Below, piece by piece: positions 4,999 through 52,177 of a stretch of 64,000 bases of DNA. Source of the stretch: Lachnospiraceae bacterium (lineage in GTDB: Bacteria > Bacillota > Clostridia > Lachnospirales > Lachnospiraceae). The notes beneath the pieces were generated by a model. That model did not search any database, had not been told where the DNA came from, and saw only the letters and a program-made list of their open reading frames with translations. Numbering within the stretch: the stretch's first letter is position 1; every line of letters begins with the position of its first letter. The position numbers and the translations under genes were made by a program. The DNA is taken from positions 62,001-126,000 of the forward strand of contig CAJTBF010000002.1 of NCBI GenBank assembly GCA_910574195.1. The letters are read 5' to 3'.

Positions 4999-5101
4999 CT
5001 CTTATTCAGAGCAGTGGAGATACAAAGGATCTGTGAAGCTGCGGCAACCCCGAAAAACAGGAAGGTGCCAACCTGAGCGAGTAAATCGAACAATAAGAGG
5101 A
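4999..5101 (+). promoter_or_regulatory. SAM-I (S-box) riboswitch
   Basis: The outer P1 stem is CTCTTAT (4999-5005) with ATAAGAG (5093-5099). Conserved S-box blocks lie between: CAGAGCAGTGGAG, CTGTGAAGCTGCGGCAAC and AAGGTGCCAAC. A terminator hairpin follows at once, so SAM is expected to switch off metK by premature termination. Confidence 0.92.
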
Positions 5102-29770: not shown

Positions 29771-29852
29771 GAAACGTTCTATGTAACTGACGGAAAAGTG
29801 GAGCGTACCACGAGGAAGCATAGAATTGGACATGCCGACCGTCTGGGCAGCT
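29771..29852 (+). promoter_or_regulatory. ZTP (pfl) riboswitch
   Basis: P1 is CTATG with CATAG; AACTGACGG and GTGG...CCAC follow the family. The hallmark 3' domain GCCGACCGTCTGGGCA is at 29834-29849. The aptamer senses ZTP/AICAR, which accumulates when formyl-tetrahydrofolate is short. A terminator overlaps its 3' end, so ZTP is expected to switch expression on. Confidence 0.88.
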
Positions 29853-29873
29853 CAGCTTGGGGCTGTCTTTTTT
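29846..29873 (+). terminator. terminator of the ZTP riboswitch
   Basis: GGCAGC and GCTGTC pair (one G-U) and TTTTTT follows. The left arm is the conserved 3' part of the aptamer, which explains mutually exclusive folding. Confidence 0.8.
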
Positions 29874-41928: not shown

Positions 41929-42398
41929 ATGAATGTTTATGACGTATTGAAAGAAAAAGGGATCACACTGCCGGCGCCGCCGCCTAAAGGAGGCGTCTAT
42001 ACGCCGGTTCAGGAATTTGGTCCCAATCTGCTGTATTGTTCCGGATGCAGCCCGGATTTGGGAAACGGGAATACATATGTCGGAAAGCTGGTGATTCCCT
42101 CACATTGGAGGAAGGGCAGAAGGCAGCGTACAATTGCATGCTGAACCTGCTTGCCAATCTGGATGCAAAGACCGGAGACCTGAATAAGATCAAACGTTTT
42201 GTAAAGGTACTTGCATTTGTGAATTCTGCGGATACTTTTTCCCAGCAGCCGCAGGTAGTCAACGGCGGTTCCAATTTGCTTCTGGAGCTTTTTGGAGAAG
42301 AGGCGGGCTGTCCGGCGAGAACGGCCATTGGAACCAATGCGCTTCCGGGAAATATTGCCTGTGAGATCGAGGTCCTGGTGGAATTAAAGGGAGAATAA
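41929..42398 (+). pseudogene. RidA-family enamine/imine deaminase, frameshifted
   Basis: RidA proteins hydrolyse reactive enamine/imine products of PLP dehydratases. The first part is in one frame (MNVYDVLKEKGITLPAPPPK to GNTYVGKL). The rest is in the next frame (GDSLTLEEGQKAAYNCMLNL to the C-terminus with [19 protein letters not shown]). The join is at about 42090: one extra G in AAGCTGGTGATT would restore KLGDSLTLEEG. Conserved family residues on both sides are intact, so the lesion is recent or a sequencing error. Confidence 0.8.
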
Positions 42399-42415
42399 TG
42401 AGGAAAGGCTGCCAT

Positions 42416-42535
42416 ATGAAAATAATTACACGATCAAAATATCTGGATAGAATCATTGAGCTAAAGGATACTCCTGATATAAAGATTATTACAGGGATCC
42501 GTCGTTCTGGTAAGTCCAAGCTGATGCAGGAATAA
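42416..42535 (+). pseudogene. truncated AAA ATPase gene (5' remnant)
   Basis: A 39-residue frame beginning [18 protein letters not shown] contains a P-loop [10 protein letters not shown] and stops at once. This is the N-terminus of the AAA_14/DUF4143-type ATPases often found as selfish or toxin-linked genes in gut Firmicutes. The remaining 350 or more residues are missing. A terminator follows 25 nt later. Confidence 0.65.
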
Positions 42536-42656: not shown

Positions 42657-42821
42657 CTAGTGTACTGACCGGATTACATTTCGCCAAATGACTTGCCTGA
42701 ATTTCCATCTGCCGCGTTGTTGTCGGTCAACGATGCCACCGCATCGCCTCCTTCCAACGCCTTGCAGACTGAAAATTCATTCTGCGTCATTTAGCTGAAA
42801 GTAATCGGGTCAGTACACTAG
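42657..42821. mobile_element. 165-bp MITE-like element with 21-bp terminal inverted repeats
   Basis: CTAGTGTACTGACCGGATTA plus C (42657-42677) is inverted at 42801-42821 with one mismatch. The interior has no ORF. It fills much of the 450-bp gap before the VWA gene. After it lies a G/C-run-rich stretch (42836-42900) in which I see no clear promoter. Confidence 0.75.
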
Positions 42822-42985: not shown

Positions 42986-44317
42986 ATGGACGAGAGAACA
43001 GCGGAGTTGGCACAAAAAGGGCTGTATTGTATCAGAAAGGATCTTTCCGATCAGTATCCTTATATGCGTCCGGCAATCTATTATCTGACGCCGGTATCCG
43101 ACGAGAAGGAAAAAAGACTCAGCACAGACGGAACCTGTCTGTTTTATCACCCGGAATATGTGCTTTCGTGTTTTGAAAGCAAGAAGAAATATTCCGGTCT
43201 GGTGTATCAGTTTCTGCATATCCTGATGCATTGTCTGCTGGGGCACGTATGTAAGAAGAATGAAGAAAATGCATTCCTGTATGACGAGTGCGCGGATTAT
43301 CTTGCAGACAGAGCGATTGAGCGGATGACGGGAAAAGCGCGGAGACGCCCGGGGCGATATGAGGTATGGGAAGAATATCATGATTTTAAAAGAAAAACCG
43401 GGGGATTATCCGTATCCGGTCTTCGAGATTACTGCAGACTCCAAAAAGAAAGGGCGGAGTATCTGCAGAAAATCGGAAAATATGTGTACAGTGATAATCA
43501 CCAATACTGGACGAAGGAAAATCCGGCGTCGCTTGCCCGGAAGGGAAACGACAGGGCGAAAGGTGCAGGCGGCAACTGGCAGTTTCTGTGGAGTCAGGTG
43601 GTTGAAACGGCGGATATGATGAAAAGAGGAGGGCTGTGCGCAGGCAATCGGGCAGGGGAAAACCAGGAGGAACGAGCGGCGTCCGCAGAAAATACTGCAG
43701 ATTATAAAAGTCTGCTGCAAAGGATGTGTTCCCTCAGAGAGGTGATTCAGACGACGGATGCGGAGTTTGATTATATCTGGTATGAGACGGGGGTCGCGCT
43801 TTATGGAAATATCCCGCTGATTGAGCCGGCAGAGTGTGCGGAGGAACCTGTGGCGGACGATATTATTATTGCCATTGATACGTCCGGTTCCTGTTCCGGG
43901 GACGTTGCTTCCCGTTTTCTGCGGGAGACATGCAATCTGCTGCGGGATATGAACATACGGGGAAATCACTGCCGGATTCGGATTCTCCAGTGTGACAGCG
44001 AGATTCAGAATGAAATTCTCATTCAGTCAAAGGAGGAAATTCCGGATTTTCAGAATCAGATGATATACGGATACGGAGGAACCGATTTCCGCCCGGTGTT
44101 TGCATATATCGAAGAATGCAGGAAAAAGGGGGAGATCAAAAAGGTGTCCGGGTTGATTTATCTTACGGATGCGGAGGGGATTTTTCCTGATCAACGTACA
44201 GACTATGAAACCGTATTTGTGGTATGGAATGCGTATGACGCTGTGTTTCGGGAGATTCCGGACTGGATTACGAAGGTAAAGCTTACAGAGGAGGATATGG
44301 AAGAGTTTTCGGTTTAG
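42986..44317 (+). CDS. VWA-domain protein with metallopeptidase-like N-terminus (DUF2201 type)
   Basis: 443 residues in two domains. The N-terminal zincin-like region has FLHILMHCLLGH (His78, His82, His87) and DECADYLADR. The catalytic Glu expected after the first His of HExxH is Ile, so peptidase activity is doubtful. The middle is variable and charged. The C-terminal VWA domain has an intact MIDAS: DTSGS from Asp298, the Thr in GGTDFRP and the Asp in YLTDAEG. The MoxR-type ATPase gene follows after 12 nt, the classic MoxR-VWA pairing. I take the ATG at 42986; a GTG at 42902 would add 28 residues. Confidence 0.82.
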   Translation: MDERTAELAQKGLYCIRKDLSDQYPYMRPAIYYLTPVSDEKEKRLSTDGTCLFYHPEYVLSCFESKKKYSGLVYQFLHILMHCLLGHVCKKNEENAFLYDECADYLADRAIERMTGKARRRPGRYEVWEEYHDFKRKTGGLSVSGLRDYCRLQKERAEYLQKIGKYVYSDNHQYWTKENPASLARKGNDRAKGAGGNWQFLWSQVVETADMMKRGGLCAGNRAGENQEERAASAENTADYKSLLQRMCSLREVIQTTDAEFDYIWYETGVALYGNIPLIEPAECAEEPVADDIIIAIDTSGSCSGDVASRFLRETCNLLRDMNIRGNHCRIRILQCDSEIQNEILIQSKEEIPDFQNQMIYGYGGTDFRPVFAYIEECRKKGEIKKVSGLIYLTDAEGIFPDQRTDYETVFVVWNAYDAVFREIPDWITKVKLTEEDMEEFSV

Positions 44318-44329
44318 AAGGAGGAACGA

Positions 44330-45598
44330 ATGATGTGGAAAGTAACGATAAAGGAAGCCAGGAAAATGATCCTGGAGTGTATCGACGTCTATCTGCAAAA
44401 AGATGAGAACGGGTATTGTATTCCCCGGAATAAGCAGCGCCCCATTTATCTGGAAGGCCCAGCGGGAATCGGCAAGACGGAACTGGCATCCCAGCTGGCA
44501 CAGGAAAAGGGACTTGGATTTGTCAGTTACAGCCTGACGCACCATACAAGACAAAGTGCGGTGGGTCTTCCGGCGATTGTGGAACGCAGAAAGGAAGGGG
44601 CGGCATATAAGGCGACAGAATATACGATGTCGGAAATCGTAGATTCGATTTACCGGTCTGTGCAGCAGGGGAATCGGGAAGGAATCCTGTTTGTGGACGA
44701 GGTGAACTGTGTGTCGGAAACGCTGTCGGCGGTTATGCTGCAGTTTCTTCAGAATAAAAGTTTTGGCCCGCACAGAATTCCGGAGGGATGGATCATTCTG
44801 ACAGCAGGAAATCCACCGGAATATAATAAATCGGTGAAGCTCTTTGATCCGGTTACCTATGACCGGCTTCGTGTGATCGAGCTGCAGCCGGATGTGGATT
44901 CCTGGCTTGAGTATGCCGTGTCGGAGGGGGTGCATCCTCTTGTGACGGAATATGTCCGGAATAACAAAGAGTATTTTTACTGGTATGAGAAAAGTGCGGG
45001 GATGACAGAGATCGTGACGGCCCGCGGCTGGGAGGACCTGTCCCGTGCCGTGAAAGCAAACGAGGCGTTTGGGTATGAGGTAAACGAGGCGCTGGTCGGA
45101 CAGTTTATCCGGAAAGAATCAATTGCATTGTCCTTTATGAATGAGTACCGTTCCTGGCGGGAATTGTTGGGAAAAAAGGAATTGCAGGAGATCCTGGCGG
45201 GGGAAAATCAGGAAGAGCACGCGGCCAGATTTGCCGGTTATGAATTTACAAAAAGGTGGACGGTTGTAAGTATTCTCTTAAAACGGCTCTATACCGAGGC
45301 GGAGGAACTTGTAAAAATCTGGAAGAAGAGAGAGGAGGAGTATGCTGTTGTGGAAGAAAAGATGGATCAGTGGGACAGAATGCTGACCAACAGTATCACA
45401 TTTATCCGGGATGCATTCGGTGTGAAGGAGGAGATGGAGCACTATCTCTCCATGATGTATCGAAACAAAAATACCGGGTATCTTCTGGCATTGAAGAGGA
45501 ATGAGTTGTTTCACGGCCTGTATCGGAAGATCAATCAGGGCGGGGATCAGAAGGAAGCCATCCGAAAGGAACTGCGTGAATGGGGGAAAAGGCAATGA
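44330..45598 (+). CDS. MoxR-type AAA+ ATPase
   Basis: 422 residues. Walker A EGPAGIGKTE (42-51), Walker B ILFVDEVN (119-126), sensor 1 TAGNP (158-162) and the arginine-finger region DPVTYDRLR. The lid and C-terminal part (about 200-422) are helical and family-specific. MoxR ATPases remodel protein complexes together with VWA partners, as RavA does with ViaA. AAGGAGGAACG lies before the ATG. The end overlaps the next gene by 4 nt (ATGA), implying coupled translation. Confidence 0.87.
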   Translation: MMWKVTIKEARKMILECIDVYLQKDENGYCIPRNKQRPIYLEGPAGIGKTELASQLAQEKGLGFVSYSLTHHTRQSAVGLPAIVERRKEGAAYKATEYTMSEIVDSIYRSVQQGNREGILFVDEVNCVSETLSAVMLQFLQNKSFGPHRIPEGWIILTAGNPPEYNKSVKLFDPVTYDRLRVIELQPDVDSWLEYAVSEGVHPLVTEYVRNNKEYFYWYEKSAGMTEIVTARGWEDLSRAVKANEAFGYEVNEALVGQFIRKESIALSFMNEYRSWRELLGKKELQEILAGENQEEHAARFAGYEFTKRWTVVSILLKRLYTEAEELVKIWKKREEEYAVVEEKMDQWDRMLTNSITFIRDAFGVKEEMEHYLSMMYRNKNTGYLLALKRNELFHGLYRKINQGGDQKEAIRKELREWGKRQ

Positions 45599-47364
45599 GA
45601 GAAGAGGTTTGTCTTGTAACACAGCCGGTAGAACTGCAAAAGGAAGAAAAATACGGCGTATTGAAATATCATTTGACAGAGCGGGCCGTCATAGAAGGTA
45701 TGGAGCATTTGCGGGAGATCAGTCAGTACTTCCGCGGGGAAAGGCAGTGGAAAAACCGGATTCTTTTACAGTGCCCGGAAACATACAGCGCTTACCAGGC
45801 GGCAGCGGCCATACAAAGCCTTTTGGCAGAGGAAAATCTTCGGCAGGAGGAAGAGACGGAAGAGGAATGGGAACTGCCGGATTCGGAAAACTGGTATGAG
45901 GACGAGGGCAGAGAGCAGGGAAAAACCACGTGTCAGCTTCTTCCCCAGGGGCAGGATTATCTTGTGGTGGCGGCCGGGGAGCTGGCGGGGGAAAGAGAAG
46001 AGGAGGAGATCAAACAGGCGGTGATGCTGCAGATGACAGAGGAACAGGGAGTGAAGCAGCTCGTCAGGCAGGCACAGCATTTACTGGTTGTATGCGGTGG
46101 GGAAAGGATACAGGAAGAGAGGCTGATGGCACAATTGGACAGGCTGAACTGTGAGACAATCCTCGTCTGTGTACCGGATCTTTCCGCAAGGCGAGAACTG
46201 GCGGAACGTCTGTTGTTTGAGCAGGGATTTGTAATACTGTCCGTGGAGAAACCAAAACCGGTTTATTATGAAATGCTTTTACAACATTATATAGAGGCGA
46301 GAGGCCGAAAACTCTGGAATTGGAAGGCCGCGCCGGAACTGCTCGAGGAACTGCGTCATTTTCGGGGGAAATATTTTAATGAAAATGATCTTTTCCTGTA
46401 TGTGGAGCATGCGGCAGAACGGGCGGGAGAACAAAGGGAAGAGCTTACCAGAGCGGATTTTGCACTGCCCCGCATCGGTTCGAGATGTCCGGCACAGGAA
46501 AGGCTGCGCAAAATGGTGGGGCTTACGGAAGTAAAAAAGCAGATTGAACGGCTGTGTGCGGTCCGGGTGATCGAAGCGGAGTACAAAATCACAAAGGGGG
46601 AACAGCCCGTCCGCCATCAAAACCTGATTTTCTCAGGGATGCCGGGGACCGGGAAGTCTGAGGCGGCAAGACTATATTCCCGCATTCTTGCGGAGAATCA
46701 TGTAACAAACGGCAGATTTATTTCCGCCAAACGGAGTGAAATGATCGGAAAATATGTGGGGCATACCGCGCCCCGGATTCAAAAGTTGTTTGAACAGGCG
46801 GAAGGCGGAATCTTGTTTATTGACGAGGCGGGAGCGCTGACACTGAGGGATGACTTTACGAAGGAAGCCGTGACCGAGCTGGTACGGTTTATGGAGGAAA
46901 ATCCGCAGACGACCGTGATTTTCGCGGCTTATCCGGATAAGATACAGGAGTTTTTACATATGGATGAAGGGCTGGCGTCCAGAATCAGTAAAATTTTGCA
47001 GTTTCCATCTTACGGCAGGGAAGAACTGGCGGAAATATTCCTCTATATGGTGAACGAGAGCGGATGGGAGCTGGAAAATGGCTGGGAGGCGGTTCTTGAC
47101 CGGTATATTGTACAAAAAAAGCAGACGGAAAAGAAAAGTTTTGGAAATGCAAGAGAGATGCGAAAGCTGATGGAGGCGGCAGTGGAATATAGCTGCGGGC
47201 GGATGTTTCAGAAAAGTGTACGCCCTGCCGGTTCAAGGTGTCAGATTACGGTTGACGACCTGAAGCATGCGGCAAAAGAGCTTTTGCCAAAGAAGCAGGA
47301 GAAAAGGCAGATTGGATTTGTGACGGCGACAGAGAATGGTGCAGCGCAGGGAGGATGTCTATGA
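45595..47364 (+). CDS. CbbX/SpoVK-type AAA+ ATPase with long N-terminal region
   Basis: 589 residues. The first 320 or so have no motif I recognise: an acidic stretch (QEEETEEEWELPDSENWYED) and a possible degenerate NTPase-like fold (QHLLVVCGGERI, CETILVCVPDLS). The C-terminal AAA+ domain is clear: VGLTEVKKQIERL, Walker A GMPGTGKSE (348-356), KYVGHTAPRIQKLFEQA, Walker B ILFIDEA (about 405-411), and SRISKILQFPSY with the sensor/Arg region. This CbbX/SpoVK family includes Rubisco activases and modules of some conflict systems. Two AAA+ proteins in one short operon is notable. The start overlaps the MoxR stop. Confidence 0.83.
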   Translation: MREEVCLVTQPVELQKEEKYGVLKYHLTERAVIEGMEHLREISQYFRGERQWKNRILLQCPETYSAYQAAAAIQSLLAEENLRQEEETEEEWELPDSENWYEDEGREQGKTTCQLLPQGQDYLVVAAGELAGEREEEEIKQAVMLQMTEEQGVKQLVRQAQHLLVVCGGERIQEERLMAQLDRLNCETILVCVPDLSARRELAERLLFEQGFVILSVEKPKPVYYEMLLQHYIEARGRKLWNWKAAPELLEELRHFRGKYFNENDLFLYVEHAAERAGEQREELTRADFALPRIGSRCPAQERLRKMVGLTEVKKQIERLCAVRVIEAEYKITKGEQPVRHQNLIFSGMPGTGKSEAARLYSRILAENHVTNGRFISAKRSEMIGKYVGHTAPRIQKLFEQAEGGILFIDEAGALTLRDDFTKEAVTELVRFMEENPQTTVIFAAYPDKIQEFLHMDEGLASRISKILQFPSYGREELAEIFLYMVNESGWELENGWEAVLDRYIVQKKQTEKKSFGNAREMRKLMEAAVEYSCGRMFQKSVRPAGSRCQITVDDLKHAAKELLPKKQEKRQIGFVTATENGAAQGGCL

Positions 47365-48053
47365 TTTACAAAAAAGAACAGAACAAAGAGAGTCTGGCGC
47401 GTTATGCGGCAGAGCAGGAAGGGACGCTGCAGACGCGGGACGGCCTGCTGGAATATCGTCTCTCCTATCTGCCGGAGCTGGCCCTGCATGGAGAGAGGGA
47501 AATTCTGGAGAGAGAGATTAGAGACGGAGCGCCGCGGCTGGGGCTTGACATGGATATTCTGTGGATCATGAAAGAGCCCATGTATTTGAGAAAGGGAGCA
47601 GATATCTGGCAGGGAAACTGCTTTTCAGGAATTGGATGGCAGTTTTATACAACATTGGATGCAGCCGTGTACGGGGGACAGTATGAAACTCTGCAAATGC
47701 TTCTTGCGAAGGGGGCCAGATTTGATCTTCGCAGTAAAAGGCTTCGGGAAATGTATTACCATTGTCCGGATGAACGTATTCTGCGGCTTGCGTTTGAAAA
47801 GAAAGAATACCATGCGGAAGTTCTGGAAATCGACCGGATTTTACAGGAAAGGGAAGAAGCCAACCTCCACCTGCTGGAAGTCCTGTATCAGAAGGGGTTC
47901 CGGCCGGTAAAAAATATTCTGGATTTATATGTACAGCAATTTTATGGCTGGCATGATGAGAAACGGCTGGAGAAGGATCCGGTGGTTCGCTTTTTCCAGG
48001 AAAAGGGGTATCGGCGGAAAGGAGAGAGCGAAGAAGAATGGGGCTTAAAATAA
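47361..48053 (+). CDS. ankyrin-like hypothetical protein, small
   Basis: 230 residues, no signal peptide. One stretch, TTLDAAVYGGQYETLQMLLAKGARFDLRS (about 98-126), is a good ankyrin-type helix pair; flanking helices (RILRLAFEKKEYHAEVLEI) are weaker repeats. GGAGG (47350-47354) fits the ATG at 47361, which overlaps the previous stop by 4 nt. A role as substrate adaptor for the ATPases of the operon is inference only. Confidence 0.7.
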   Translation: MIYKKEQNKESLARYAAEQEGTLQTRDGLLEYRLSYLPELALHGEREILEREIRDGAPRLGLDMDILWIMKEPMYLRKGADIWQGNCFSGIGWQFYTTLDAAVYGGQYETLQMLLAKGARFDLRSKRLREMYYHCPDERILRLAFEKKEYHAEVLEIDRILQEREEANLHLLEVLYQKGFRPVKNILDLYVQQFYGWHDEKRLEKDPVVRFFQEKGYRRKGESEEEWGLK

Positions 48054-49738
48054 GGAGAAAAGAAACGCCCGGAAAAAAGATTCTGGATGAAATACGAACA
48101 CTGCTGATGATGACAGAAGAAAGCATACCTTACCGAACGCAAAGCGTTCCCTTGTGCGAAGCGCCTCAGACAAGGGATGTCCGAAAGAGCGTACCTTATC
48201 GGATGCAAAGTTTGTCTGCTTCCGTTGGGGAGGCTGCATTAAGGGGGACCCGGCCAGGGATGGATCAGGAGAAATGTGCCGCAAAGATTCGGAAAGCGCT
48301 GGAGGCATATGACGACTATGTACGGGGAAGAGAGCTGTGCGACAAGACGAAAAGCCGGATCCTTTTGAAAGATTCCAGATACCGGACAGAAGGCGATATA
48401 AAATGTATGGAAGAATGCCTTTTTCTGGCAGCACGACAGGATGCGGAAGAGATCTTTGACACGCTTCTCTCCAGAACTATTTCGGCGGCAGAGATCAATT
48501 CGCGGTGGGAACAGAAATATCGAAACAAACTGGCAGAGAAATTCGGCCCGCAGGGGATGTCCCCACGTCTGTGGGATGCAGATCATGTTCCCGGCATTTA
48601 TGCGGCGGTTCTGACCGGGGATGAAGCGCGGATGGAGGCGGAGTTTGCTTTTGACACCGGCTTTGAGGTAGATCATACAGAGGAATTTCTTTTGTATGGG
48701 GCCATGGCGGGTCTGGCGGAATATCTTGAAGACGGGGAAAAATTAGAAAAAATCACAGGAAAAACGATGTTTACGGCGGGATTTGCGGAAGGAAATATTC
48801 TGGAAACCGTACATTGCCATGATCTTTTTACAGCGGCCGTTCTTTCGGAAAAGCAGGAAACGATACGGTATCTGACTGAAATTCTGGGGGAGATCCCATG
48901 GAGCCGGGGACTGGAAGAAGGAATTTTGTATGCGTCGAAGGAGCTTCAGGATTTTATGCTGCGGGAATTTCCGGAGATTCAAAACTATGTTTCTCTGTCG
49001 GCAATTGTACGGGCAAGAAATACCCGTTTTCTGGAAATTCTTATGGACGGGCAGAAAAACCGGACGGATCACTGGACGGAATTGGCGGATTGGATCCATA
49101 CAGGCCGGGGATGGCTGGACGATCCCTGCGTGGAGCTGCAGAATCTAAGAGAAGAAAAACAGTTTCTGGACAGACTGCTCCATTTTGTACCGGAGCGGAA
49201 ATATATTCCGGGAATCCAGACCATGCTGTGCAGGGATGCATTGTCGTCGGCGGGAAGAGAAGAACGGTGCAGAATGCTGTTTCAGGTCTTTTTTGAAGCG
49301 GGAGACGTAAGCCGGGAAGATTTTTCCTGGTTTGCAGTGCAATGTATCCACGGTAATCTGAAAATGCTGAAAGTCCTGCGCGGCGTGCCCAATTTCACCC
49401 GTATCGGAATTGATCCGCATACGGAGGAACTGAATCCGGAAGGTATTTTCAAAGGACTTCTGATAGCACAGGGAGGACTGGACAGGGTAATGGAAGTATT
49501 TGTACCATTAAATACCGGACCGCAATTGGATGGGATTGTCCGCACTGCGTTGGCGGAGAATAAACCAGGCGTCATAAAGAAAGCAATTCAATGCGGTTAT
49601 CTTACCGGAGAAAATGCGTTAAATGCATATGAGAAGCTGTTGGAGCAGGGGAATGTGAAGGAAGAGCTTCTTGCCGTACTGATTGCGCTTGCCCAGAAGG
49701 AAGAGAGGAAAGAACGTTATGAAAGGGAGGAAAACTGA
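48038..49738 (+). CDS. ankyrin-like hypothetical protein, large paralogue 1
   Basis: 566 residues, soluble, no recognised catalytic motif. The helical repeat pattern is ankyrin-like: HVPGIYAAVLTGDEARMEAEF, HCHDLFTAAVLSEKQETIRYL, LLREFPEI-type segments, NTRFLEILMDG and GIDPHTEELNPEG near the end. It aligns over most of its length with the next gene, so the two are diverged tandem duplicates. Residues about 28-70 come from palindromic repeat DNA (PYRTQSVPLCEAPQ and PYRMQSLSAS) and look like an insert. The start lies within the end of the previous gene (16-nt overlap). Confidence 0.7.
   Translation: MGLKIRRKETPGKKILDEIRTLLMMTEESIPYRTQSVPLCEAPQTRDVRKSVPYRMQSLSASVGEAALRGTRPGMDQEKCAAKIRKALEAYDDYVRGRELCDKTKSRILLKDSRYRTEGDIKCMEECLFLAARQDAEEIFDTLLSRTISAAEINSRWEQKYRNKLAEKFGPQGMSPRLWDADHVPGIYAAVLTGDEARMEAEFAFDTGFEVDHTEEFLLYGAMAGLAEYLEDGEKLEKITGKTMFTAGFAEGNILETVHCHDLFTAAVLSEKQETIRYLTEILGEIPWSRGLEEGILYASKELQDFMLREFPEIQNYVSLSAIVRARNTRFLEILMDGQKNRTDHWTELADWIHTGRGWLDDPCVELQNLREEKQFLDRLLHFVPERKYIPGIQTMLCRDALSSAGREERCRMLFQVFFEAGDVSREDFSWFAVQCIHGNLKMLKVLRGVPNFTRIGIDPHTEELNPEGIFKGLLIAQGGLDRVMEVFVPLNTGPQLDGIVRTALAENKPGVIKKAIQCGYLTGENALNAYEKLLEQGNVKEELLAVLIALAQKEERKERYEREEN
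48124..48245 (+). repeat. palindromic repeat inserted in frame in a coding sequence
   Basis: Two units begin at about 48124 and 48190 (TACCTTACCGAACGC and TACCTTATCGGATGC). The first has the stems GAACGC-AAA-GCGTTC and CCCTTGT...ACAAGGG. The architecture and the shared ACCTTATCGGA core are like the 70-bp repeats at 19525 and 56329. The frame is kept through both units. Confidence 0.6.
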
Positions 49739-51674
49739 CTGGGACGATTTGTTTCGGGGAGGAGGCCCGGGGGAAGGAGGCCCAGGGGAAGGAAATCCGG
49801 AAGAAAGAAATCCGGGAGAAGAAAACCTAGAAGAGGAAAATATTGCCGGTCTGTTTGAGGATTCCCTGTATCCGGAAAGGATAGATCATGAGATCTGGGA
49901 GTTGATTTCAGATCCGGAGCAGACAGACTCGGCGGCATATCTGGAAAAGATTGAGGTCCTGATAAAGAAACTGTGGGAAAGCATGTGTAAAATGTCTCTC
50001 TGTATGTACCGAGGGATTTCCTGGCAGAGCCGAGGAGAAGGAATGTACTTTTTACAGGAGCCGGAGCCGGGAAACTATTCCGAATACATCTGCGAATATC
50101 TGTGTCTGGCGGCGGAAAAAGAAAAGGAGGCACTCTTTGATCTTCTCCTTACGAAAAGCTGCAGAATCAATATCTGGAGGGAGAGGGCGGTGGGAACCGT
50201 TTCCTGGAATGAAGAACGGCAAAACAGGAGAAAAGGAAAACTGATTCATACGAAATCTGTCTGGCTGGAAAAGATTATCCGGAAATGCGGCATTCAAAAT
50301 CAGGCGTTTGAAGAAAGGCGGTGCAATGTGCCGCAGCCGGTTGAAACCGATGTACCGGGACTTTATATGGCAATCCTTGCCGGGGAGACAGAATTGGTGA
50401 AATTCTATCTTACTTACGGGGGGGAACTGCACCGGGACGACACAGAGGACTGCCTTCTGTACGCGGATTTTTACCATCACAATTTCGCTCCCTGGAGCCA
50501 ATGGGATTTTGAGGGAAAGATACTTGTAAAATGCCGGCATGAGTTGGGATATGCGGTAAAATTTCCAGGTAGAAATGCCTGCAGATTTTATGAACCGCCG
50601 ATCTTTCAAGAACAGAAGTACGAACTGCACGTTCATGATCCATTCACGATGGCAATTTTATCTGGAAATAAAGAAATGATCCGATTTATCGCAGAACGGA
50701 TCGGCAGATTAGAATGGAATGAAAATATGGAACAGAGCATTGTATACGCAAATTATGAGATTACAGCGCTGCTGCTGAAAGAATTTCCGGAGATTCTGGA
50801 CTATCTCTGTCTGACCGCAATTTTGCAGGGGAAAAATACAGTATTGTTAAAGGCTTTTCGAGAGAAACGCCGGGATACGATGAAAAACGAAGAACAGGAG
50901 GCGGAAAAATTTTTGCGTTGGTATACAAGAGAGGCCTGCCTTTTGCTGAAAGAGGCCGCGTTCTGGCATCATTTTAGTATGACGAGAGAAATTTCTTTTT
51001 TCAGAGAATTACTTACCGGGATACAGGATCCGGAATTTCGGGAGCTGGCATGGGGATTCCTGTGCTGCGAATGGATTCTGGCAGAGAAAAATGAAAGAAA
51101 GGGGCGGGAACGGTTTATAAAACTGCTTCTTTCGTATCCGGACGAGGATTTGGCAAAATCAGATGCAGAAGGCCTGAGCGCTCCGGAAGGGATTCGTGTT
51201 ACTAAATACCTGCACGGGCGCGGGCAGCGGGATTTTACGGAAATATTCTTTCATATGCAGGATACATGGTATCCCGGGAATTGGTTCAACGAGGAATTAT
51301 TTGGAAATATTCTTACCCTTATGCGTCCGGTCAGCCGGGAGAAAGGCTTCCGGCGTTTTGGAATAGATCTGTACACAGACAGATGGAAAGAAATAAAGAT
51401 CAATTATGTACGGCAGGGAATCCTGTTTATGAAATTATTTGTTCCCTTGTATATAAGTCCCCAGGCGGATGTGATCAATCAGGAAATCATCACAACCGGC
51501 AGCAGCCGGCTCGTAAGATCCGCGGTCAGACGAGGATTTATTACAGAAAAAAATGCCTGGGCATTATATCAATACGCACTGGAAATTGGAATATTAAACG
51601 AAGAGATTTTGACATTGCTGCAGGAATTGCTGCGGGAGCGGAGCCTGAAAGAAAGATATATCTACAGATTTTAG
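49719..51674 (+). CDS. ankyrin-like hypothetical protein, large paralogue 2
   Basis: 651 residues. A Gly/Glu/Pro-rich N-terminal linker (GPGEGGPGEGNPEERNPGEE) is followed by a long helical-repeat region related to the previous gene: DVPGLYMAILAGETELVKFYL, HVHDPFTMAILSGNKEMIRFI, LLLKEFPEILDYLCLTAIL and GIDLYTDRWKEI, ending with a similar C-terminal domain (RGFITEKNAWALYQYALE). There is no catalytic motif. The start at 49719 overlaps the previous stop by 20 nt and follows GAGGAAAG. It is the last gene of the six-gene unit. Confidence 0.72.
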   Translation: MKGRKTDWDDLFRGGGPGEGGPGEGNPEERNPGEENLEEENIAGLFEDSLYPERIDHEIWELISDPEQTDSAAYLEKIEVLIKKLWESMCKMSLCMYRGISWQSRGEGMYFLQEPEPGNYSEYICEYLCLAAEKEKEALFDLLLTKSCRINIWRERAVGTVSWNEERQNRRKGKLIHTKSVWLEKIIRKCGIQNQAFEERRCNVPQPVETDVPGLYMAILAGETELVKFYLTYGGELHRDDTEDCLLYADFYHHNFAPWSQWDFEGKILVKCRHELGYAVKFPGRNACRFYEPPIFQEQKYELHVHDPFTMAILSGNKEMIRFIAERIGRLEWNENMEQSIVYANYEITALLLKEFPEILDYLCLTAILQGKNTVLLKAFREKRRDTMKNEEQEAEKFLRWYTREACLLLKEAAFWHHFSMTREISFFRELLTGIQDPEFRELAWGFLCCEWILAEKNERKGRERFIKLLLSYPDEDLAKSDAEGLSAPEGIRVTKYLHGRGQRDFTEIFFHMQDTWYPGNWFNEELFGNILTLMRPVSREKGFRRFGIDLYTDRWKEIKINYVRQGILFMKLFVPLYISPQADVINQEIITTGSSRLVRSAVRRGFITEKNAWALYQYALEIGILNEEILTLLQELLRERSLKERYIYRF

Positions 51675-51855: not shown

Positions 51856-51884
51856 GAATATGAAAACAAACCCCTGCATACATT
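51856..51884 (+). promoter_or_regulatory. sigma-E-type sporulation promoter of spoIIID
   Basis: GAATATG (51856-51862), a 14-bp spacer and CATACATT (51877-51884) resemble the sigma-E pattern (KMATATT, CATACA-T). It fits the known sigma-E control of spoIIID and puts the RNA start near 51890. Confidence 0.65.
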
Positions 51885-51913
51885 GTAAAAACAGGTTTTG
51901 CAGGGGGATTTTG

Positions 51914-52177
51914 TTGAGAGATTATATTGAAGAAAGAGCCGTAGAAATCGCCAATTATATTATAGAAAGCAATGCCACAGTACGGCAGACAGCAAAAAAA
52001 TTCGGGATAAGCAAAAGTACGGTACATAAAGATGTAACGGAACGTCTTCTTCAGATTAATCCGTCTCTTGCGGCACAGGCACGGAAAGTGCTGGATACGA
52101 ATAAATCGGAGCGGCATATCCGGGGCGGACTTGCTACCAGAGAAAAATATCTGCATCTGGAGCATCAACATTCCTAA
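51914..52177 (+). CDS. spoIIID: sporulation transcription factor SpoIIID
   Basis: A mother-cell DNA-binding protein that switches gene expression in mid-sporulation. 87 residues: RDYIEERAVEIANYIIESNATVR, then the helix-turn-helix AKKFGISKSTVHKDV, then the basic tail with NKSERHIRGGLATREKY. I use the TTG at 51914, which gives the family N-terminus and has AGGGGG 6 nt upstream. The longer frame from an ATG at 51860 would start upstream of the predicted RNA 5' end. Its presence indicates a spore former. Confidence 0.93.
   Translation: MRDYIEERAVEIANYIIESNATVRQTAKKFGISKSTVHKDVTERLLQINPSLAAQARKVLDTNKSERHIRGGLATREKYLHLEHQHS

What the first reader, a model, noticed from the sequence alone, without database searches (positions are those of the whole stretch)
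42986..51674. Six-gene VWA / MoxR / CbbX-type AAA / ankyrin-like operon: candidate undescribed system
Six genes on one strand with gaps or overlaps of 12, -4, -4, -16 and -20 nt encode a VWA protein with zincin-like N-terminus, a MoxR AAA+ ATPase, a CbbX/SpoVK AAA+ ATPase and three ankyrin-like proteins. MoxR-VWA pairs are known chaperone modules (RavA-ViaA) and are cores of some predicted NTP-dependent conflict systems. I do not know this combination with a second AAA+ ATPase and a duplicated large helical-repeat partner. A MITE-like element and a truncated ATPase gene upstream suggest a variable locus. Function (defence, stress remodelling, envelope complex) is inference.
Basis: partly seen in the sequence, partly recalled or inferred. 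Interest (0 to 1): 0.85.

Follow-up and report, generated by a model that had tools for sequence, protein, structure and literature searches.

The report
Divergent MoxR–VWA operon with ankyrin-like partners
Six tightly packed bacterial genes combine a known type of protein-remodelling machine with a second motor protein and three repeat proteins; no other genome searched had the whole set, but its first two genes are an odd branch of a three-gene module common in the same bacterial family.

Summary
In detail: six same-strand genes (A VWA/DUF2201, B MoxR, C SpoVK/CbbX-like AAA+, D–F ankyrin-like; E and F paralogous) with the stated gaps and overlaps, a MITE-like element and a truncated P-loop ORF upstream. 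The conserved six-gene system does not: among 397 family genomes, D–F relatives were found in one other, as a repeated cassette in a genome with no A or B match, and no C-type ATPase or D–F relative lay within five genes of the pair in 71 surveyed loci. A–B, however, are the most divergent aligned members of a family-wide module: VWA lay within two genes of MoxR in 69 of 71 loci, and a leucine-rich-repeat/helical-tail protein flanked the pair in 63 of 71 (2 of 785 other ORFs). My searches found no description of this LRR–VWA–MoxR module. I read the window as a derived version whose LRR component is replaced by ankyrin-like proteins plus a second AAA+ ATPase; a weak, mixed C-terminal similarity of E/F to the LRR protein's tail fits but does not prove it. 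The function (remodelling of a target, possibly conflict-related) is inference; no effector domain was recognised, and PADLOC gave only weak AAA-level matches.

The parts
42986..44317 (+). A: VWA (DUF2201) protein, 443 aa; N-terminal three-His zincin-like region without catalytic Glu; MIDAS residues D-T-S-x-S, T, D intact
44330..45598 (+). B: MoxR-type AAA+ ATPase, 422 aa; Walker A, Walker B, sensor 1 and Arg residues intact; about 80 aa shorter than most aligned relatives
45595..47364 (+). C: SpoVK/CbbX-like AAA+ ATPase, 589 aa; C-terminal AAA domain (about residues 300-545) with Walker A and B read directly from the sequence; N-terminal part without detected relatives
47355..48053 (+). D: ankyrin-like protein, 232 aa (or start 47361); 40% identical over 136 columns to a protein of another Lachnospiraceae genus
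48038..49738 (+). E: helical, ankyrin-like protein, 566 aa, paralogue of F
49719..51674 (+). F: helical, ankyrin-like protein, 651 aa, paralogue of E; mostly helical in a low-confidence model
42657..42821 (.). MITE-like element, 165 bp with 36-nt terminal inverted repeats, between the truncated P-loop ORF and gene A
42365..42535 (+). Truncated P-loop ORF (56 codons stop to stop; P-loop recognised by reading)

Best explanation
One translationally coupled operon encodes a protein-remodelling machine. B (MoxR ring) and A (VWA adaptor with a MIDAS metal site) are the motor–adaptor pair. They are a very divergent copy of a Lachnospiraceae LRR–VWA–MoxR module, in which a fast-evolving solenoid protein is the third, presumably target-recognising, part. 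Here that LRR protein is absent and its role is taken by ankyrin-like D, E and F, helped by a second AAA+ motor, C. Proposed working: D/E/F bind a target or hold it inactive, A contacts the complex through MIDAS, B (and C) use ATP to remodel or release it. Shown: gene order, overlaps, intact AAA and MIDAS residues, the family-wide triad, E–F paralogy, recurrence of D–E/F. Inferred: physical complex, replacement of the LRR part, mechanism and biological role.
For: Overlapping starts and stops. Intact Walker and MIDAS residues. B matches in 231 of 397 family genomes, 19 of them only weak (E above 1e-50; my count of the list). Survey of 73 loci, 71 with a MoxR ORF called: VWA within two genes in 69, LRR-or-tail gene adjacent in 63, against 2 of 785 ORFs at other positions. 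The third component varies most: median pairwise identity 21% against 38% (VWA) and 48% (MoxR). It can lose or change its LRR: L074 has part of the tail + DUF6273, L138 has HAD + LRR, and four short proteins keep the tail with no LRR_5 match. E/F C-termini resemble the tail: hhalign E 6.4e-4, 0 of 200 column shuffles reach the score; AUC 0.81 against at most 0.77 for other E/F segments and 0.75 for 40 shuffles.
Against: The tail match is weak and mixed: hhalign probability 28%; another E/F tile scores 20.1 against 22.1; a control segment puts as many LRR tails in the top 20 as the E/F tail does, 8. In the reverse HMM search E scores only E 0.011 (best domain 7.6 bits; best of 1000 shuffles 0.1), a kinase-like ORF ranks above it, F is not among the 40 rows printed, and with the full-length LRR model E lies among the shuffles. 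D–E/F occur in G012 without an A or B match. No C-type ATPase is near the pair elsewhere; the profile hits were FtsH and ClpB. B has a very long branch (5.36), so its derivation is unresolved. No structure supports the complex.
Confidence: 0.45

Rival explanations
1. Juxtaposition: A–B are an independent divergent MoxR–VWA pair, and D–F (perhaps with C) are a separately mobile cassette placed behind them at a variable spot; overlaps reflect compaction, not a shared machine. D–E/F would act on their own, for example as an array of binding or immunity-like proteins.
For: G012 carries two D genes and two E/F-type stretches (one a fragment) at contig ends; E/F stretches lie 1.68 kb apart and are 90-92% identical in the two longest repeats (a third repeat 67-89%), with no A or B match in the genome. 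A MITE-like element and a truncated P-loop ORF border the window operon. None of five congeners with 6-18 kb upstream of spoIIID showed matches to A–F there (genes read).
Against: Five consecutive junctions with a 12-nt gap or overlaps of 4-20 nt suggest co-expression of all six; C overlaps both neighbours.
Confidence: 0.33
2. A conflict (anti-phage or other defence) system of the MoxR–vWA ternary kind, with D–F as sensors and one part as effector.
For: Published ternary systems pair MoxR–vWA with a variable third component, one class with a second AAA+ ATPase (PMC7159879; PMC8195603 passages); strong divergence and rarity here.
Against: No effector domain recognised by Pfam or NCBIfam; PADLOC gives only weak AAA-level matches. 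No relatives of F or D in phages, of D or E in plasmids, or of D, F or E/F in pattern-limited scans of viral contigs; F does match phrog_7059, function unknown, at 3.8e-4.
Confidence: 0.15
3. Phage-derived virion assembly module: A–B descend from a jumbo-phage MoxR–vWA pair with N-terminal metallopeptidase.
For: A and B match phrog_1314 (1.2e-25) and phrog_1297 (7.5e-38); such a pair is described in jumbo phages with a proposed role in virion assembly (PMC7824862 passage). Seven short unannotated faecal contigs labelled 'Bacteriophage sp.' match B at 44-50%; whether they are phage or bacterial was not checked.
Against: Lachnospiraceae chromosomal genes match B at 40-51%, the five named phages listed only at 21-22% (12 of 373 records listed). 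I recognised no phage genes among the neighbouring ORFs read.
Confidence: 0.04

Closest known systems
MoxR–VWA chaperone pairs (RavA–ViaA, NorQ–NorD, CbbQ–CbbO)
   Same: Adjacent MoxR AAA+ and VWA genes with intact Walker and MIDAS residues; in NorQ–NorD the VWA plugs the hexamer and an intact MIDAS is needed for the target (PMC9976466, passages).
   Different: A has a DUF2201-type VWA with a three-His N-terminal region; four extra genes follow; no target gene recognised nearby.
MoxR–vWA ternary conflict systems (VMAP, iSTAND, FtsH, iSTAND2, TERNS3; PMC7159879, PMC8195603)
   Same: Core pair plus a variable third component; the FtsH class has a second AAA+ ATPase.
   Different: No effector domain recognised; the second ATPase is CbbX/SpoVK-like; partners are ankyrin-like. 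VMAP, iSTAND and TERNS3 profiles were not at hand to test.
Lachnospiraceae LRR_5/tail–VWA–MoxR module (this work; no description found in searches)
   Same: A and B are homologues of its VWA and MoxR; the own genome also has a VWA, LRR and MoxR set on contig 6 (L069).
   Different: No LRR gene beside A–B; C–F instead; A and B have the lowest mean identity of 69 and 72 aligned sequences.
CbbX / SpoVK / EccA AAA+ ATPases
   Same: C-terminal AAA and lid align to CbbX structures 3zuh and 3syk, E about 1e-37.
   Different: Far below NCBIfam cut-offs; N-terminal part unmatched.
Jumbo-phage MoxR–vWA with metallopeptidase domain (PMC7824862, passage)
   Same: A VWA protein with an N-terminal metallopeptidase-like part beside a MoxR ATPase.
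   Different: Named phage relatives of B are distant (21-22%); A lacks the catalytic Glu.

Membership tests
MoxR–VWA chaperone pair | Adjacent genes for a MoxR AAA+ ATPase and a VWA protein | tested here: met
MoxR–VWA chaperone pair | Intact Walker A/B and MIDAS residues | tested here: met
MoxR–VWA chaperone pair | Physical complex and ATPase coupling | not testable with these tools
   needs purified proteins
Kaur et al. MoxR–vWA ternary conflict systems | Third component of type VMAP, iSTAND or FtsH | tested here: inconclusive
   No such match in C–F (an FtsH_fam match of C at 20 bits is far below cut-off 600); VMAP and iSTAND profiles not available
Kaur et al. MoxR–vWA ternary conflict systems | Effector domain fused to VWA or encoded next to it | tested here: not met
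   No effector domain recognised in the six; an unknown one in D–F cannot be excluded
Lachnospiraceae LRR/tail–VWA–MoxR module | VWA (DUF2201) and MoxR homologous to the module's | tested here: met
Lachnospiraceae LRR/tail–VWA–MoxR module | Adjacent LRR_5/tail third gene | tested here: not met
   No LRR match in the six or the upstream RidA-like ORF
Lachnospiraceae LRR/tail–VWA–MoxR module | Helical C-terminal tail in the partner | tested here: inconclusive
   Weak, mixed similarity of E/F C-termini
SpoVK or CbbX | NCBIfam equivalog score | tested here: not met
   176 of 423 and 148 of 459 bits
Ankyrin-repeat proteins | Pfam ankyrin score above gathering | tested here: not met
   Best 15.5 (D) and 16.7 bits (F), cut-offs 22.7 and 22.3; fold not confirmed, model pLDDT 45
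Zincin metallopeptidase | HExxH catalytic motif (motif recalled) | tested here: not met
   HxxxH; no Glu at that site in the window or 68 relatives
Known anti-phage defence systems (PADLOC 2.0) | Strong match to defence-system proteins | tested here: not met
   Only weak AAA-level matches, best IetA 5.6e-9 for C

The most novel reading that the evidence does not exclude
Lachnospiraceae carry an undescribed class of MoxR–vWA ternary system, LRR/tail–VWA–MoxR, whose fast-evolving third component is a swappable recognition protein (LRR, DUF6273, HAD–LRR, short tail forms). The window is its most derived form seen: the recognition protein became a set of duplicated ankyrin-like receptors driven by two different AAA+ motors.
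Probability: 0.3. Interest if true: 0.72.

Novelty: new variant of a known kind. Interest (0 to 1): 0.5.

Why it matters
For MoxR–VWA pairs the target is often unknown. A module whose MoxR gene has strong matches in over half of the sampled Lachnospiraceae genomes (about 212 of 397), with one rapidly varying partner next to the pair in 63 of 71 loci, gives a handle on target choice: the partner may specify the target. If the replacement reading is right, the window is a natural partner swap that could test this in a major family of gut bacteria.

Tried and rejected
Six-gene system as a conserved unit: rejected (E in 1 of 12 genomes of the genus, the own one; E/F in 2 of 397; D in 2 of 397; D in 1 of 266 of the order, the own one; no congener match reaches the N-terminal part of C). 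SpoVK next to VWA–MoxR: three ORFs matched my SpoVK profile in two loci, but on reading they are FtsH and ClpB. Inactive AAA domain in the N-terminal half of C (which would parallel the FtsH ternary systems): suggested only by strand/helix order in a very poor model; the profile test was negative, score 19.6 with shuffles up to 20.3; not claimed. Catalytic zincin in A: no Glu. Models of F (pLDDT 45) and C (pLDDT 35) were too poor for a fold search, so none was run. PDB sequence search with E/F: nothing; with A: nothing; with B: Midasin, 1.3e-4. Phage, plasmid and viral-contig searches for D–F: no match, nor for A and C in viral contigs. Genome-contig scan with E found nothing; with D, one contig. 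These scans depend on short peptide patterns, so absence is weak evidence. The promoter scan found fewer sites than shuffles; terminator-like sites exceeded shuffles (15 against 8.9, sd 2.5), but none lies between F and spoIIID. MoxR tree: end branch of B 5.36 and the bootstrap had not settled, so its place is unsure.

Limits: the 73 surveyed loci are mostly the top of the MoxR listing (60; 13, a few of these chosen for a short MoxR, the own genome or the genus), not a random draw, and some genomes give two. L130 and L173 were dropped from counts because my ORF picker called no MoxR there. The 8 of 71 without an adjacent third gene include contig-edge cases. ORFs came from my own longest-first script. 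Alignments left out short members (VWA up to 380 aa, MoxR up to 350, LRR under 250). The LRR model was built from 11 loci of the same survey where adjacency first showed the family; the 2 of 785 background is the control.
Full report
What is there. The window carries six same-strand genes, A–F, at 42986-51674, with a 12-nt gap and overlaps of 4, 4, 16 and 20 nt (start contexts). A is a VWA protein (DUF2201, above Pfam cut-off). B is a MoxR-type AAA+ ATPase. C is an AAA+ ATPase whose last 290 residues resemble SpoVK and CbbX. D and F have sub-threshold ankyrin matches, E none. E and F are paralogues, 24% identical over 531 columns, E 2e-35. Walker and MIDAS residues of B and A are intact, as in the relatives. 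The supposed zincin part of A keeps H-x-x-x-H and a third His, but there is no Glu after the first His in the window or in 68 aligned relatives. Upstream lie a RidA-like ORF, a truncated P-loop ORF ending at 42535 and a 165-bp MITE-like element with partial copies elsewhere in the genome. Downstream is spoIIID.

Is the set conserved? Not in the genomes examined. E was found in 1 of 12 genomes of the genus, the own one. A profile of E and F was found in 2 of 397 genomes of the family, and a profile of D in 2 of 397 and in 1 of 266 of the order, the own one. The second genome is G012. There, D genes lie at the ends of two contigs and E/F-type stretches (one full, one a fragment) flank the D of contig C34; the E/F stretches are 1.68 kb apart and 90-92% identical in the two longest repeats. 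A gene that I read as an HNH nuclease is next to them. G012 is listed without a match to B and gave none to A at E up to 0.1. So D–E/F are a real, recurring pair, separable from A–B. For C, no match listed in 200 family genomes begins before residue 216 (the list was cut), and phmmer with residues 1-300 against the ORFs of 34 fetched SpoVK-like loci found nothing. In congeners, the stretch upstream of spoIIID (about 17-18 kb in four, 6 kb in a fifth) shows no match to A–F.

The family-wide module. B has matches in 231 of 397 family genomes, 19 of them only weak (E above 1e-50, my count of the list). I fetched wide neighbourhoods for 73 loci. A MoxR ORF was called in 71. A VWA homologue lies within two genes in 69 of 71, and an LRR_5-type or tail-bearing gene directly flanks the pair in 63 of 71, against 2 of 785 ORFs at all other positions (first count). 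The third gene may sit on either side of the pair. Pfam found LRR_5 in 10 of the 15 third-component proteins scanned, the other five having been picked because they looked LRR-less. It is the most variable part: median pairwise identity 21% against 38% for VWA and 48% for MoxR. Its C-terminal helical tail is kept in four short proteins (three with no Pfam match, one with an unrelated sub-threshold match), in part in a protein with a DUF6273 domain (L074; tail-model positions 48-82 of 84, E 1.8e-4), and in a HAD–LRR protein (L138). Two loci have Hsp70 and DnaJ genes directly behind MoxR (L077, L152). The own genome has a VWA, LRR and MoxR set on contig 6, with MoxR on the other strand (L069). 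Within five genes of MoxR in the 71 loci, no D, E or F relative matched and the three SpoVK-profile hits were FtsH and ClpB on reading.

How the window relates to it. A and B have the lowest mean identity of both alignments (27.5% and 40.4%; rank 1 of 69 and 1 of 72), and B has an end branch of 5.36 against a median of 0.42. No LRR gene is next to them. The C-termini of E and F resemble the tail of the LRR proteins: hhalign score 22.1, E 6.4e-4, probability 28%, 0 of 200 column shuffles as high (best 16.1). Another tile of E/F scores 20.1, so part of this may be general helical-repeat likeness. An HMM of the two tails ranks LRR tails above other ORF tails with AUC 0.81; other E/F segments give 0.55-0.77 and 40 shuffles at most 0.75; but one control segment puts as many LRR tails in the top 20 (8) as the tail does. 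In the reverse search with the tail model E is at E 0.011 (best of 1000 shuffles 0.1), below a kinase-like ORF; F is not among the 40 rows printed; with the full-length LRR model E (E 3) lies among the shuffles. I call this suggestive, no more.

Mechanism. In NorQ–NorD a MoxR hexamer is plugged by the VWA partner, whose MIDAS site is thought to contact the target (PMC9976466, passages). My best reading is that A–B do this here, that D–F take the place of the LRR part as target-binding or holding proteins, and that C adds a second remodelling motor. Only gene order, motifs, relatedness and co-occurrence are shown; the complex, the targets and the role are inferred. The main rival is juxtaposition with a mobile D–F cassette, supported by G012.

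Known systems. Published MoxR–vWA ternary systems have a variable third component, and the FtsH class has a second AAA+ ATPase with an inactive N-terminal AAA domain (PMC7159879, passages and section 21; PMC8195603, passages; PMC12839542, one passage). The window resembles these in outline but has no recognised effector domain, so I do not file it as a member. Jumbo phages have a MoxR–vWA pair with a metallopeptidase part (PMC7824862, passage), in line with the PHROG hits of A and B. Searches for a description of the LRR–VWA–MoxR module, or of MoxR–VWA with ankyrin or SpoVK partners, gave none in the listings; the library holds open-licence papers only, and apart from the passages named I saw listings.

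Verdict. A real, unusual operon; not a conserved six-gene system in the genomes examined; probably a divergent variant of a widespread three-gene module for which I found no description. Interest 0.5.

Noticed in passing
L069-L081, L115-L174: An LRR_5/tail–VWA–MoxR module in Lachnospiraceae: third gene adjacent in 63 of 71 loci, 2 of 785 other ORFs. Wider than the window and probably the more general finding.
   Followed up: partly
L113 (G201) and L114 (G205); window spoIIID at 51860-52177: In two congeners spoIIID matches come in two parts about 5 and 10 kb apart, and in a third (G203) on two contigs, as if the gene were interrupted by an inserted element. Intact in the window.
   Followed up: no
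L092 12931-15279 (G012): E/F-type stretches around a D gene repeated 1.68 kb apart, 90-92% identical in the two longest repeats, next to a gene with a weak PADLOC type IV restriction match, 1.7e-4.
   Followed up: partly
L077 and L152: Hsp70 and DnaJ genes directly downstream of MoxR in two related loci, which would fit a chaperone role of the module.
   Followed up: no
window 4999-5099 and 29773-29855: SAM and ZMP/ZTP riboswitches.
   Followed up: no
plasmid hits: In several Streptomyces plasmids the stretch matching C's AAA domain is annotated as a right-handed parallel beta-helix repeat protein, another possible pairing of CbbX-like ATPases with repeat proteins.
   Followed up: no
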